Shown here: positions 58,608 to 64,000 of the stretch, one piece after another
How the letters are laid out: each line of letters begins with the position of its first letter
Position numbering within the stretch: the stretch's first letter is position 1
Assembly: GCF_002305895.1 (NCBI RefSeq)
Contig: NZ_CP022203.1
Coordinates: forward strand, 1,590,501 to 1,654,500
Direction: 5' to 3'
Source: Corallococcus macrosporus DSM 14697
GTDB lineage: Bacteria; Myxococcota; Myxococcia; Myxococcales; Myxococcaceae
DNA length: 64,000 bases
Position numbers and translations under genes: made by a program
Notes under the pieces: model-generated
Told to the model about the DNA's origin: nothing
The model's database searches: none
What the model saw: only the letters and a program-made list of their open reading frames with translations

Positions 58608-59570
58608 GTGGCTACAGTTTCCTCCGTGTCCGACGCGCCGCGCATACATCCGCCCACGCAGCGGCTCATGGACGGCGAGGCCGAGGCGCCTCGGGAGGAT
58701 GTGGCGCCCTGGGCGCCGCTGACGGACACCCTGGCTCGGGAGGATGCCGCGCCGTGGGTGCCTTCACTGGAGGATGTCGCACCCCAGGCCCCGCCGACGG
58801 CTGCAGCGGCTGGGGAGGCTGTCGCGCCCCGGGCGCCGCTGGTGGCCATGCCTGGGGAGGCCGTCTCACCGCGGGGGCCGCCGGGGGCCACGTCCCGGGA
58901 GGCCCCCTCGCCTTCGCCGCGCTCGGGCAAGCCCACGCCGCCCCTGGACCTGCCCCTCCCGGTGTTGGTGCTGACGGAGCAGGCACAGCGCGCGCCGGAG
59001 GCGGAGCGCCCCTTGATTGCGGCGCGCCTGAACCTCCAACTGGCGCGGATGGCCCGGACCGGCGGGGACCGGTTGGTGGCGGACACCTTCCTGCGCCTCC
59101 TGGAGAGCGGCCGGCTCACGGGGTTGGTGGATGCCCGGGGGCGCACCTGCCGCGCGGCGGCGGTGGAGGCCCTGCTGTCCCTGGGCTTCCCCTACGCCCT
59201 GGAGGTCCACCCCGAGGACCTGGCGCACCTGCGCGCCAACGCCCAGCAGCGCAAGAAGCGGCGCGGGAGGCCGGGTGCGTCCGTGGCGGTGTTGGTGGGC
59301 GGCCTGAGCGCGCAGGGGGCCCACGAGGCCCTCTTTCCCTTCCGGGACGCCAGCCTGCTCACCTCCCAGGTGGGACTGTCCCTGCTGGCGATGACCGCCT
59401 TGTGGCTTGCCCGGCCCGGGACGCCCGTGTACCGCGTGGGGCTGCTGATGCTGGCCCTGGTCTCCCTCGGCGGGGTGGCGCTGGCGCTCGTGGGCGCGGC
59501 GCACACAGGGGTGTGGGTGGGACTGGGGGGGCTGGTGGCCGCCCTCCTGGCTGCCCTCCGCGAGGGCTGA
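58608..59570 (+). CDS. Membrane protein with degenerate N-terminal repeats
   Basis: The product is 320 aa. Residues about 29-102 hold about five loose repeats of the form E-(D/A)-x-A-P-x-x-P-x, for example REDVAPWAPLTDTLA and EAVAPRAPLVAMPG. A helical domain follows, with LIAARLNLQLARMART and LRANAQQRKKRRGRP. Three or four C-terminal membrane segments are visible (LSLLAMTALWLA, VYRVGLLMLALVSLGGVALALV, GVWVGLGGLVAALLAALRE). It diverges from the sigma-factor operon, 67 bases away. The GTG at 58608 or the GTG at 58626 may be the start. Confidence 0.75.
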   Translation: MATVSSVSDAPRIHPPTQRLMDGEAEAPREDVAPWAPLTDTLAREDAAPWVPSLEDVAPQAPPTAAAAGEAVAPRAPLVAMPGEAVSPRGPPGATSREAPSPSPRSGKPTPPLDLPLPVLVLTEQAQRAPEAERPLIAARLNLQLARMARTGGDRLVADTFLRLLESGRLTGLVDARGRTCRAAAVEALLSLGFPYALEVHPEDLAHLRANAQQRKKRRGRPGASVAVLVGGLSAQGAHEALFPFRDASLLTSQVGLSLLAMTALWLARPGTPVYRVGLLMLALVSLGGVALALVGAAHTGVWVGLGGLVAALLAALREG

Positions 59571-60771: not shown

Positions 60772-60828
60772 GCGTGCGCTTCACCCGGGCGTTTTGCCCG
60801 CATAAGGCGATTCGCCCGTGAAACGAGA

Positions 60829-60860
60829 GGGCCGTCCACCGCGAGGTGGGCGGCCCTTTT
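60829..60860 (+). terminator. Rho-independent terminator of recA
   Basis: GGGCCGTCCACC (60829-60840) pairs with GGTGGGCGGCCC (60845-60856) around a GCGA tetraloop, with one G-T pair. TTTTGCTT follows. A strong terminator in the standard form. Confidence 0.88.
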
Positions 60861-61012
60861 GCTTGGCGTCTGGAGTTTCGCGTGCCGGTTCGCACCGCGC
60901 GTGGGTGACACGGCGCGTTGTCATTTCATCCATGGGGATGTTTCCTGCTGGATGGAAGGGCGCTCTAGACTCGCGGGCCTGTTACCCAACCCGCGCAACC
61001 CGGAGTGCCGCC

Positions 61013-63166
61013 TTGTTCGACCGATTCAAACGCCGCAGTTTCCTCCAGGCCGTCGTCGCTGTGGCAGCGACCACTGCGTTCGGATGTAACGACGATGAGA
61101 CGTCGTCGGATGCTGGCGAGAAGTACTTCCCGCAGTCGGTGTGCTCGGGTGACCCGCGCCCGGACAGCGTGGTGCTGTGGGTGCGCGCGGTGGACCCGGA
61201 CAACGCGGGCGCGAACACGCAGGTGCGGCTGGAGGTCTCCACCAGCGAGTCGTTCAGCAGCCTGGTGCTGGACCAGACGTTCACCGCGCAGGCGGCGTTC
61301 GACCATGCGCTGAAGGTGAAGGTGACGAACCTGTCCGCGCGCACGACGTACTACTACCGCTTCTCCATCGACGCGGGCGGCCAGAAGCACTCCACGGTGA
61401 CGGGCCGCACCCGCACCGCGCCGGCCCCCACGGACACCGTGCCGGTGAAGTTCGTCTTCGCGAGCTGCCAGGACTACATCGGCCGTTACTACAACGCGTG
61501 GCAGCACCTGCTGCAGCTCGACGAGGACCTGGACTTCGTCGTCTTCCTGGGTGACTACATCTACGAGACGACGGGCGACGCGTCCTTCCAGTCCGTGGAC
61601 GGCCGTGGCGTCATCTTCAGCGAGCCGGAGAAGGCGCTGCGCCAGGGCACGGGCCTGACGGCGTTCTACGCGGCCAACTCGCTGTCCAACTACCGCGACC
61701 TCTACAAGAACCTGCGCAAGGACAAGGTCATCCAGCGGGTGCACGAGCGCTACCCGTTCATCGTCACCTGGGATGACCACGAGTTCTCCGACGACTGCTG
61801 GGGCGACGTCGCGACGTACACGGACGAGAAGACCAACGAGAAGCAGACCGAGCGCCGCCGCAACGCGGAGCAGGCCTTCTTCGAGTACATCCCCATGGAG
61901 CACGGCGAGAGCGCCGCGGGCGCCATCGACATCAACGCCGTGGTGTCCCAGCCCACGCGCATCTACCGCGACTTCGAGTTCGGTCAGAACCTGAAGCTGC
62001 TGGTGACGGACACGCGCACCTACCGCCCCGACCACCTCATCCCCGAGGACGCCTACCCGGGCAAGGTGGCGGTGCCGGCCGAGCAGCTCGCCCTGGTGCT
62101 GCCGACGCTGCCCGAGCCCGTCCAGGCGCAGCTCCAGTCGGACATGTTCGCCTACGTGGACATCGACGCCGCGGAGCTGCGGCTCTACAAGGACCTCCTC
62201 ACCGGCGTGTACGTGCAGCAGGCCGTCGCCGCGGGGCTCACGGCGGAAGAGGCGGCCACGAAGGCGGCCACCTGGATTACCGGCGGGCAGGCGCTCCTGT
62301 ACGTCAACCAGGTGCTGAACGCCGTCAACCAGGCGCGCGTGGCGGCGGGCGAGGATGCCATCCCGGCGATTCCCGTCGACGGCACGCCGCGCGGCCTGGC
62401 CTTCGCCCACATGGGCAAGACGGGGCTCTTCGGCATCCAGGGTTCGCGCTACGTCGTGGTGAAGCCCATCTTCGACCTGTACGCGGCCATCAAGTACATG
62501 GGCTCGGCGGGGGCCTCCGAGGGCATCTTCGGCAACGAGCAGCAGGCGTGGCTGCAGGAGTCGGTGTCGCAGGCCACCAACGCGTGGAAGATCATCGTCT
62601 CCTCCATCTCGCTCACCACCATGGTGTTCAAGCTGAGCGACAAGGCGGACGTCCCGGACCCCACGCTGCGCCAGGACTTCTACTTCAACGTGGACCAGTG
62701 GGACGGCTTCCCCACGAAGAAGCAGGAGTTCCTCAAGTCCCTGCGCGACAGCAACGTGCAGAACGCGCTGTTCATCTCCGGCGACATCCACGCGTCCTTC
62801 GCGTCCGTGGAGTCCGGCATCCCCGCGCTGACGGCGCCGGCCATCTCCTCCGGCTCCATCAAGGAGCTGGCGGGCCTGGCCGTCATCGGCGCGGGCTTCT
62901 CCACCGGCAGCACCGTGTACCGGTACATCGTGGCGGAGCTGGACAAGTCGCTGAAGGAGGCCCACCCGGGCATGGAGTTCGTGGACGGTGACGCCCACGG
63001 CTTCGTGGTGCTGGAGGTCGGCGCCTCCGAGGCGAAGGCGTCCTTCCACCTCATCCCGAGCACGGAGATCGCCAAGGACTACTCGCTGCGCCAGCCCTCC
63101 GAGCTGACGGAGAAGTTCACCCGCCGCGACTTCGTCATCAAGGACGGCACCATCACCGCCGCCTGA
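61013..63166 (+). CDS. PhoD-like alkaline phosphatase, Tat-exported
   Basis: The product is 717 aa. It begins with a Tat signal (DRFKRRSFLQAVVAVAATTAFGC), whose cysteine could also make it a Tat lipoprotein. The PhoD N-terminal Ig-like domain (PRPDSVVLWVRAVDP...LSARTTYYYRFSIDAGGQ) precedes the metallophosphatase domain with SCQDYIGRYYNAW, GDYIYE, TWDDHEFSDDCWG and FISGDIHASF. It should release phosphate from phosphodiesters outside the cell. I chose TTG 61013, which has GGAG 7 bases upstream; an upstream ATG lies farther away and yields no signal. Confidence 0.93.
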   Translation: MFDRFKRRSFLQAVVAVAATTAFGCNDDETSSDAGEKYFPQSVCSGDPRPDSVVLWVRAVDPDNAGANTQVRLEVSTSESFSSLVLDQTFTAQAAFDHALKVKVTNLSARTTYYYRFSIDAGGQKHSTVTGRTRTAPAPTDTVPVKFVFASCQDYIGRYYNAWQHLLQLDEDLDFVVFLGDYIYETTGDASFQSVDGRGVIFSEPEKALRQGTGLTAFYAANSLSNYRDLYKNLRKDKVIQRVHERYPFIVTWDDHEFSDDCWGDVATYTDEKTNEKQTERRRNAEQAFFEYIPMEHGESAAGAIDINAVVSQPTRIYRDFEFGQNLKLLVTDTRTYRPDHLIPEDAYPGKVAVPAEQLALVLPTLPEPVQAQLQSDMFAYVDIDAAELRLYKDLLTGVYVQQAVAAGLTAEEAATKAATWITGGQALLYVNQVLNAVNQARVAAGEDAIPAIPVDGTPRGLAFAHMGKTGLFGIQGSRYVVVKPIFDLYAAIKYMGSAGASEGIFGNEQQAWLQESVSQATNAWKIIVSSISLTTMVFKLSDKADVPDPTLRQDFYFNVDQWDGFPTKKQEFLKSLRDSNVQNALFISGDIHASFASVESGIPALTAPAISSGSIKELAGLAVIGAGFSTGSTVYRYIVAELDKSLKEAHPGMEFVDGDAHGFVVLEVGASEAKASFHLIPSTEIAKDYSLRQPSELTEKFTRRDFVIKDGTITAA

Positions 63167-63239: not shown

Positions 63240-63380
63240 TGGCCGTTTGGGAGGGCGTACCGGCCCGGGAGGCGGGCTCACGCGAGGTGGCCGCCACCGC
63301 GCCCCGTCCGCCCGCCTCCAGCGTCAATCACGCGGCGGCGTCACGCTGGCGTGCCCCTCCCCGGGACGGCGTGCCTTGGC

Positions 63381-63785
63381 TCAGCCGCACTGGAGCAGCA
63401 GGTGCTCCAGCCGGTGCCTGGCCAGGTACTCCAGCAGCGCCTCCCGCGGCGGCAGGTTGCTGCGGTACGGCTGCTCGCAATGCCCCGTGTAGAGGCCGCC
63501 GCCGGGGCCGGTGTAGAGGCCGCCACCAAGCCCCCGGTACAGGCCGCCGCCGGGGCCGGTGCTCATCCCTCCGCCGGGGCCGGTGTAGAGGCCGCCGCCG
63601 GGCGCGGTGGAGAGGCCGCCGCCAAGGCCGGTGTAGAGGCCGCCGCCGGGCGCGGTGGAGAGGCCGCCGCCGGGGCCCGTGGAGGCGCCGCCGCCGGGGC
63701 CGGTGTAGAGGCCGCCGCCGGGGCCGGTGTAGAGGCCGCCGCCCGGCCCCACATGGCGGTCCCTCGGCCAGGTGTTCTTCAGCAT
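63381..63785 (-). CDS. Small protein with eleven glycine-rich octapeptide repeats
   Basis: The product is 134 aa. After a 12-residue head (MLKNTWPRDRHV), residues 13-100 are eleven tandem octapeptides with consensus G-P-G-G-G-L-Y-T; variants are A or L for P-side residues, S for Y, and M or A for L. The C-terminal 34 residues (HCEQPYRSNLPPREALLEYLARHRLEHLLLQCG) are a different, helical domain with two cysteines. There is no signal peptide. GGGAGG lies 8 bases before the ATG at 63785. No known function is recognised. Confidence 0.8.
   Translation of the reverse strand: MLKNTWPRDRHVGPGGGLYTGPGGGLYTGPGGGASTGPGGGLSTAPGGGLYTGLGGGLSTAPGGGLYTGPGGGMSTGPGGGLYRGLGGGLYTGPGGGLYTGHCEQPYRSNLPPREALLEYLARHRLEHLLLQCG
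63486..63749 (-). repeat. Eleven tandem 24-bp units
   Basis: Eleven 24-bp units encode the glycine-rich octapeptides. Units differ at third positions and at a few codons for Tyr/Ser and Pro/Leu, showing both recent duplication and divergence. Confidence 0.93.
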
Positions 63786-63899
63786 GCGCGTCACCTCCCG
63801 GCGCCCTTCGCCTGGGGGGGCGCCCTTCTCCATGGCGGCTCGGCGACGCGAGTCCCAGGGGGCGGCCGGCGGGCGCGGTGGAGCGGGGTGGAACAGCGT

Positions 63900-63922
63900 C
63901 CCCGCCCGGGCTCCGGGCGGGG
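63900..63922 (-). terminator. Hairpin after the gene entering from the right
   Basis: CCCCGCCCGG (63900-63909) and CCGGGCGGGG (63913-63922) form a perfect 10-bp stem with a 3-base loop, 13 bases beyond the stop at 63936 on the minus strand. Confidence 0.55.
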
Positions 63923-63935
63923 CGCGAGGTCGCGG

Positions 63936-64000
63936 CTACAGCGCGGCTTCCAGCGTCTTCTGGATGGCCTGGGTGCGGTCCTTCACGTCGTCGATGTTGG
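63936..64000 (-). CDS. C-terminal end of a protein entering from the right (partial)
   Basis: The minus-strand frame ends in TAG at 63936-63938 after about 20 residues (NIDDVKDRTQAIQKTLEAAL). The end is a helix rich in charged residues with a leucine pattern. A hairpin follows. The family cannot be determined. Confidence 0.6.
   Translation of the reverse strand, partial: NIDDVKDRTQAIQKTLEAAL

What the first reader, a model, noticed from the sequence alone, without database searches (positions are those of the whole stretch)
63381..63785. Glycine-rich octapeptide repeat protein of unknown function
Two thirds of a 134-aa protein is an uninterrupted run of eleven GPGGGLYT-type octapeptides, with a unique basic head and a cysteine-bearing helical tail. 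The repeats carry regularly spaced Tyr, Ser and Thr side chains on a Gly/Pro backbone. This could be a structural (silk- or elastin-like) protein, a kinase substrate, or a modified peptide precursor; none is established.
Basis: partly seen in the sequence, partly recalled or inferred. Interest (0 to 1): 0.65.

Follow-up and report, generated by a model that had tools for sequence, protein, structure and literature searches.

The report
Mobile eleven-octapeptide glycine-repeat protein family
The odd glycine-rich repeat protein is a real, strongly conserved gene that turns up in very different bacteria on prophages, on plasmids and beside anti-phage defence genes, belongs to no named protein family, and may take part in the conflict between bacteria and their mobile elements.

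Summary
In detail: 63381-63785(-) encodes 134 aa with eleven GPGGG(L/M)(Y/S)T octapeptides between a WPRD head and a helical tail. It is no low-complexity accident, and nothing points to a silk. Its family is absent from Pfam, NCBIfam, PHROGs and PADLOC. About 40 members occur in at least eight phyla. Of 37 uncut copies, 28 have exactly 11 units, with a conserved tail (PYxSNIPPWPVFVxELExRG). Two E. coli copies differ at 78% of synonymous but 3.5% of nonsynonymous sites; within most genes adjacent units are no more alike in DNA than codon usage predicts, so selection holds the repeat. The gene is accessory: five sister genomes lack the 1.2 kb holding it and a 136-aa neighbour. Elsewhere it abuts Gabija GajA-GajB (twice), type III restriction (twice), TrlF-like ATPases (twice) and a dCTP deaminase; it lies beside P2-type integrases, in the P2 old/tin position and on plasmids. 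Best reading: mobile-element cargo acting in phage-host conflict, a small folded protein whose ends clasp. The function is inferred; a crude control did not show defence enrichment by hit count.

The parts
63381..63785 (-). Octapeptide-repeat gene, 134 aa plus stop, MLKNTWPRDRH...LLLQCG
   Evidence: homologues; purifying selection
63791..63799 (-). Shine-Dalgarno-like GGGAGGTGA upstream of the ATG at 63785
   Evidence: sequence read directly
63750..63785 (-). Basic head, residues 1-12, with the family motif WPR(D/N); the structure model pairs W6-P7 with R108-S109
63486..63749 (-). Eleven octapeptides GPGGG(L/M/A)(Y/S)T, residues 13-100; unit 3 carries Ala in place of Leu/Met
63384..63485 (-). 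Conserved tail, residues 101-134: PYRSNxPP strand followed by a helical hairpin (two helices, pLDDT 87-93 over most of the hairpin in the homologue L085)
63938..64000 (-). 3' end of a 136-aa neighbour gene (MGLPERRAQKAYETNVF...NIDDVKDRTQAIQKTLEAAL), upstream on the same strand, running past the window end; it sits beside the repeat gene in both genomes that carry it at this site
63249..64000 (.). Left part of a ~1.2-kb accessory block (continues 464 bases past the window end) that holds the repeat gene and the 136-aa gene and is replaced by 39-119 bp in five sister genomes
60818..63166 (+). PhoD-like phosphatase ORF flanking the block (identity assigned from its sequence, no family search run); its 3' part is found in all 27 genomes of the genus; not part of the system

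Best explanation
The gene is a member of an undescribed, pan-bacterial family of small accessory proteins carried as cargo by prophages, plasmids and defence islands. It most likely acts in conflicts between bacteria, phages and other mobile elements, as a stand-alone anti-phage or exclusion factor or as a helper of a neighbouring system. SHOWN: conserved architecture (WPR head, about 11 octapeptides in fixed register, helical-hairpin tail), purifying selection, patchy distribution, gain or loss at an empty site, and mobile or defence neighbours at many but not all loci. INFERRED: the protein folds into one clasped unit in which the head pairs with the PYxSN segment, holding the eleven glycine-rich units as an ordered array that shows like Leu/Met and Tyr/Ser/Thr side chains at an 8-residue spacing; the helical hairpin docks this array to a partner. 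The partner is unknown.
For: Repeat number is exactly 11 in 28 of 37 uncut copies and 10-12 in 34 of 37, with unit-specific residues (Ala at unit 3, Leu at 6-10, Met at 11) kept across phyla. E. coli pair: 83 of 106 synonymous versus 10 of 290 nonsynonymous sites differ; Myxococcota pair dS 0.58, dN 0.10. In most members neighbouring units are no more alike in DNA than codon usage predicts, so the amino-acid repeat is maintained rather than freshly duplicated. Patchy: found in about 0.5-3% of the genomes sampled in each phylum and in 18 of 5,426 E. coli genomes. Empty site in five sister genomes. Neighbours: GajA+GajB directly upstream in two phyla; type III restriction plus Ppl/TrlF-like ATPase (L048) and type III restriction (L109); Ppl-like ATPase plus a Cas4-like nuclease (L053); dCTP deaminase plus PLD protein (L013); HEC-01 pair in E. 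coli P2-like prophages; class VI defence RT on a plasmid (L058). It lies next to a P2-type integrase (L072, L076-L078, L089) and next to the portal gene (L085, L075), the position of the P2 hotspot that holds old/tin (PMC9122126). Clasp: the only paired strands in both models join the head to PYxSN, and the two exported forms (L026, L073) have one Cys just before the head and one within that same segment.
Against: No member has a tested function. A control of 87 proteins from random regions of the same genomes also gave several PADLOC hits (generic kinases, a regulator, one RT), so raw hit count does not show enrichment over the 88 neighbours. The window copy itself and several others (G111, G140, G201, G654) have no recognised defence gene nearby. 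The repeat array is predicted with low confidence (pLDDT about 30-68), so the clasped fold is a hypothesis.
Confidence: 0.45

Rival explanations
1. General fitness cargo without a conflict role, such as a small stress, envelope or metabolic helper that simply travels on mobile DNA and therefore lands in islands that also hold defence genes.
For: Several members have no defence gene nearby (G000, G074, G111, G140, G201, G654); two members are exported; the control did not show enrichment.
Against: Repeated direct adjacency to complete multi-gene defence systems in unrelated phyla and placement at prophage cargo sites.
Confidence: 0.25
2. Counter-defence or antidote protein: a small protein carried by prophages and plasmids that inhibits, or protects the carrier from, restriction, Gabija and similar systems beside which it is found.
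For: Present on plasmids, some conjugative, and next to phage integrases; sits directly behind GajAB or restriction genes in the same direction, as an antidote would; small size.
Against: Classical anti-restriction DNA mimics are strongly acidic (own knowledge), whereas most members here are near neutral or basic (window pI 9.0, E. coli 9.2). No match in 50,697 phage records. The neighbouring systems share no obvious common target.
Confidence: 0.17
3. Structural silk-, elastin- or flagelliform-like protein or matrix component.
For: GPGGX composition resembles flagelliform silk (own knowledge); two members have signal peptides.
Against: Nearly all members lack a signal peptide, are only 130-160 aa and keep about 11 units in a fixed register; they are carried by prophages and plasmids.
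Confidence: 0.06
4. Precursor of a modified peptide (RiPP) or a phosphorylation array.
For: Regular Tyr/Ser/Thr spacing.
Against: No recurrent modifying enzyme beside the gene; whole subfamilies without a Tyr at that position of the unit (SQYGGLST, GAGGGLST).
Confidence: 0.04
5. Non-functional low-complexity ORF made by DNA slippage.
For: A 24-bp tandem repeat in GC-rich DNA with several open frames; recent unit copying in a few members (L004, L056, L058, L063, L066); a 24-bp deletion in one E. coli strain.
Against: Synonymous saturation with amino-acid identity, conserved head and tail, conserved unit number and register, and the same frame open in low-GC genomes.
Confidence: 0.02

Closest known systems
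Accessory cargo genes of P2-like prophage anti-phage hotspots (old/tin locus and relatives; Rousset et al. 2022, PMC9122126)
   Same: Same places: beside the portal gene gpQ in L085 and L075, and near cI-int with the HEC-01 pair in E. coli; small, patchy, exchangeable genes
   Different: I found no described cargo family with this sequence; in E. coli it lies between int and the host gene rcdA rather than in the cos-proximal site; activity untested
Gabija (GajA OLD-type nuclease plus GajB UvrD-like helicase)
   Same: Two members follow gajA-gajB on the same strand (29 bp and about 490 bp downstream)
   Different: Gabija is defined by two genes; this third gene is not part of the described system, and most members are not near Gabija
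Pfam ALTTAQ repeat (PF20080)
   Same: The SQYGG-type members L082 and L068 score above its gathering cut-off in the repeat (E 1.7e-20 and 1.8e-15)
   Different: GPGGG-type members, including the window protein, do not match; head and tail are not covered by that model; shared composition is possible
Flagelliform spider silk GPGGX and prion octarepeats PHGGGWGQ (from memory)
   Same: Gly/Pro-rich short repeats; the prion repeats are also octapeptides with an aromatic residue
   Different: No homology found; here the unit number is nearly fixed, there is no His in the unit, and there is a conserved bacterial head and tail

Membership tests
Pfam / NCBIfam / PHROGs families | Score above a curated or significant threshold over the protein | tested here: not met
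   No hit for the window protein at E<=1 in any of the three; other main-branch members likewise in Pfam
ALTTAQ repeat (PF20080) | Match of the repeat above the gathering score of 26.4 bits | tested here: not met
   Not met by the window protein; met only by the SQYGG-type members L082 and L068
PADLOC anti-phage proteins | Match of the protein to a PADLOC model | tested here: not met
   0 families for the window protein
Gabija system | GajA and GajB encoded together beside the gene | tested here: inconclusive
   Met for the members in L046 and L016; not met for the window, whose flanks hold no GajAB
Gabija system | The third gene is required for or modulates defence | not testable with these tools
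   Needs phage assays with and without the gene
P2-like prophage hotspot cargo | Located between gpA and portal gpQ, or in another described hotspot | tested here: inconclusive
   Met for L085 and L075, adjacent to the portal gene (definition from PMC9122126). Not met for the window gene, which is chromosomal beside phoD
Anti-phage factor (function) | Reduces phage propagation | not testable with these tools
   Needs an experiment
Silk/elastin-like structural protein | Export signal and a long, variable repeat array | tested here: not met
   No signal peptide seen in the window protein (by eye); 28 of 37 copies have exactly 11 units

The most novel reading that the evidence does not exclude
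The octapeptide array is a new closed or clasped protein fold that serves as a generic recognition or blocking module in phage-host conflict: one small protein, active alone or as a third component of Gabija, restriction and dCTP-deaminase systems, shared by many bacterial phyla and overlooked because gene callers miss or misread it.
Probability: 0.2. Interest if true: 0.85.

Novelty: new variant of a known kind. Interest (0 to 1): 0.6.

Why it matters
A short gene under strong selection, found on mobile DNA in at least eight phyla, has no family model and is often left unannotated or called in the wrong frame. Its repeated placement behind Gabija and restriction genes and at prophage cargo sites makes it a directly testable candidate anti-phage or counter-defence factor, including an E. 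coli copy that can be assayed in K-12. The near-fixed number of eleven glycine-rich units is also a structural puzzle that current prediction does not solve.

Tried and rejected
1) Second weak hit in the window's own genome: not a homologue on reading. 2) Weak matches in G094, G098, G084, G050 and others: low-complexity repeats of large proteins, such as DAGPDGG or GVVFGPVS types. 3) PDB match to Rhoptry neck protein 2 (E 1.5e-4): taken as compositional. 4) Foldseek search of the window model: best E 7.7, meaningless. 5) Idea that codon choice avoids DNA repeats to keep the unit number: not supported overall; several members show recent unit copying instead. 6) Raw PADLOC enrichment against random regions: not shown. 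7) Tail profile against PDB: only short helix matches, best E 0.1. 8) Literature searches for the motif strings and for a third Gabija gene found nothing. 9) tblastn with the window protein on plasmids found nothing, probably because BLAST masks the repeats; a member with a better conserved tail found 22 plasmids.

Full report
WHAT IS THERE. Window 63381-63785(-) encodes a 134-aa protein: MLKNTWPRDRHV, eleven octapeptides of the type GPGGG(L/M/A)(Y/S)T, and the tail GHCEQPYRSNLPPREALLEYLARHRLEHLLLQCG. The ATG at 63785 is preceded by GGGAGGTGA.

A REAL, CONSERVED PROTEIN FAMILY. No Pfam, NCBIfam, PHROGs or PADLOC family matches the window protein. Searches by protein, alignment and tail motif nevertheless found about 40 members. 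They come from other Myxococcota (G061, G074, G077, G111, G140), Desulfobacterota (L015, L046), Helicobacteraceae (L013), Planctomycetota (L018, L047), Patescibacteria (L017/L048, L109), Bacillota (Clostridiales L016 and L055, Aerococcus, Enterococcus, Bacillus, Paenibacillus, Weissella, Leuconostoc), Actinomycetota (Actinomycetospora L012, Clavibacter L064) and Pseudomonadota (Vibrio campbellii L062, Acinetobacter L058, E. coli L076). Names of genomes reached by phylum search follow the seed record. The uncut members share the head WPR(D/N) or close variants, the repeat and the tail PYxSNIPPWPVFVxELExRGxxxxAxLIRRxL. In 28 of 37 copies not cut by a contig end or an IS the unit number is exactly 11, and in 34 it is 10-12. 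Unit 3 has Ala where the others have Leu or Met in most members, units 6-10 have Leu and unit 11 mostly Met, so single units keep their identity across phyla. Contracted copies exist (1, 2 and 7 units in L061, L027, L084), as do broken ones (L012 frameshifted, L060 cut at its 5' end beside IS1216).

SELECTION. Two E. coli alleles differ at 83 of 106 synonymous but 10 of 290 nonsynonymous sites; the window gene and its G074 orthologue have dS 0.58 and dN 0.10. Inside most genes the units are 77-94% identical in amino acids while third positions agree about as often as codon usage predicts (shuffles). A few members (L004, L056, L058, L063, L066, and to a lesser degree L072 and E. coli) show recent unit copying, and E. 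coli RM10466 has lost one unit. So units do turn over, yet selection holds the array near 11. The units of one protein also share a signature (GV in L018 and L056, PYGG in L004 and L058, SQYGG in L068 and L082, GA in L071), which suggests that the units pack against each other (inference).

MOBILE AND ACCESSORY. In the window genome and in G074 the gene lies between a phoD-like gene and a 136-aa gene on the same strand. In five sister genomes the segment L019 1750-2965 (window 63249 to 464 bases past its end), holding both genes, is replaced by 39-119 bp. In E. coli the gene occurs in 18 of 5,426 genomes; in the five inspected it lies between the integrase of a P2-like prophage and rcdA. A P2-type integrase also lies beside it in L072, an integrase in L071, and the portal gene in L085 and L075. 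The portal-to-gpA interval is the P2 hotspot that holds old and tin (PMC9122126). Other copies are on plasmids.

DEFENCE NEIGHBOURS. Directly upstream and on the same strand are gajA-gajB in a Desulfobacterota genome (L046, 29 bp away) and a Clostridiales genome (L016, about 490 bp). Also adjacent are a type III methyltransferase, a Ppl/TrlF-like ATPase and a ResIII helicase in L048; type III restriction in L109; a Ppl-like ATPase and a Cas4-like nuclease in L053; and a dCTP deaminase and a PLD protein in L013. The E. coli prophage carries the HEC-01 pair just before the integrase, and the Acinetobacter plasmid a class VI defence RT. A control tempers this: 87 proteins of random regions in the same genomes also hit PADLOC at 1e-20 (PD-T4-6 kinases, RtcR, one RT and others), so raw counts do not prove enrichment. 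The difference lies in kind: complete multi-gene systems touching the gene. Several members, the window's among them, have no defence gene near.

STRUCTURE. AlphaFold2 with 15 sequences gives no confident model of the repeats (window: mean pLDDT 60.5, other four models about 40; L085: 46.4, with 87-93 over most of the tail hairpin). In both runs the tail is a helical hairpin, and the only paired strands join the head (W6-P7 in the window) to PYxSN (R108-S109). Independently, the two members with signal peptides (L026, L073; judged by eye) carry one Cys just before the head and one in that same segment (YCSN/YCSR), as expected if the ends lie together and are locked by a disulfide outside the cytoplasm (inference).

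MOST LIKELY WORKING. A small clasped protein carrying a nearly fixed glycine-rich array, moved between bacteria as cargo and used in phage-host conflict, either alone or as helper of a neighbour system (confidence 0.45). The architecture, selection, mobility and neighbourhoods are shown; the conflict role and the binding mechanism are inferred. Main rivals: cargo without a conflict role (0.25), and counter-defence or antidote (0.17). It is not filed as a member of Gabija, of P2 hotspot systems, of ALTTAQ-repeat proteins or of silks, because the window protein itself fails or cannot be put to their defining tests.

Noticed in passing
L076 8998-9394 (E. coli); also L089, L090, L062, L065, L067, L064, L061: RefSeq annotates a wrong-frame ORF (WP_024205920.1, L076 9032-9346) over the conserved E. 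coli reading frame, and no CDS is listed over the gene in several other records. This probably explains why no family model exists.
   Followed up: partly
L082 6668-7123; L068 5962-6429: The SQYGG-type members score above the gathering cut-off of Pfam ALTTAQ repeat (E 1.7e-20, 1.8e-15), a repeat known from other proteins; homology or shared composition is open.
   Followed up: no
L026; L073 5818-6285: Two members have N-terminal signal peptides and a pair of cysteines flanking the repeat array, so an exported branch of the family seems to exist.
   Followed up: partly
63938-64000 and beyond (L019 2437-2848); L020 5436-5846: A 136-aa gene of unknown function travels with the repeat gene in both genomes that carry it at this site; relatives occur in 16 of 27 genomes of the genus, mostly at 49-61% identity.
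   Followed up: partly
L109 8245-8673: A 12-unit member has Ala in both units 3 and 4, as if the Ala-bearing unit had been duplicated.
   Followed up: no
58810-58904: A 42-bp tandem repeat of 2.3 copies lies in a GC-rich stretch with open frames on both strands.
   Followed up: no
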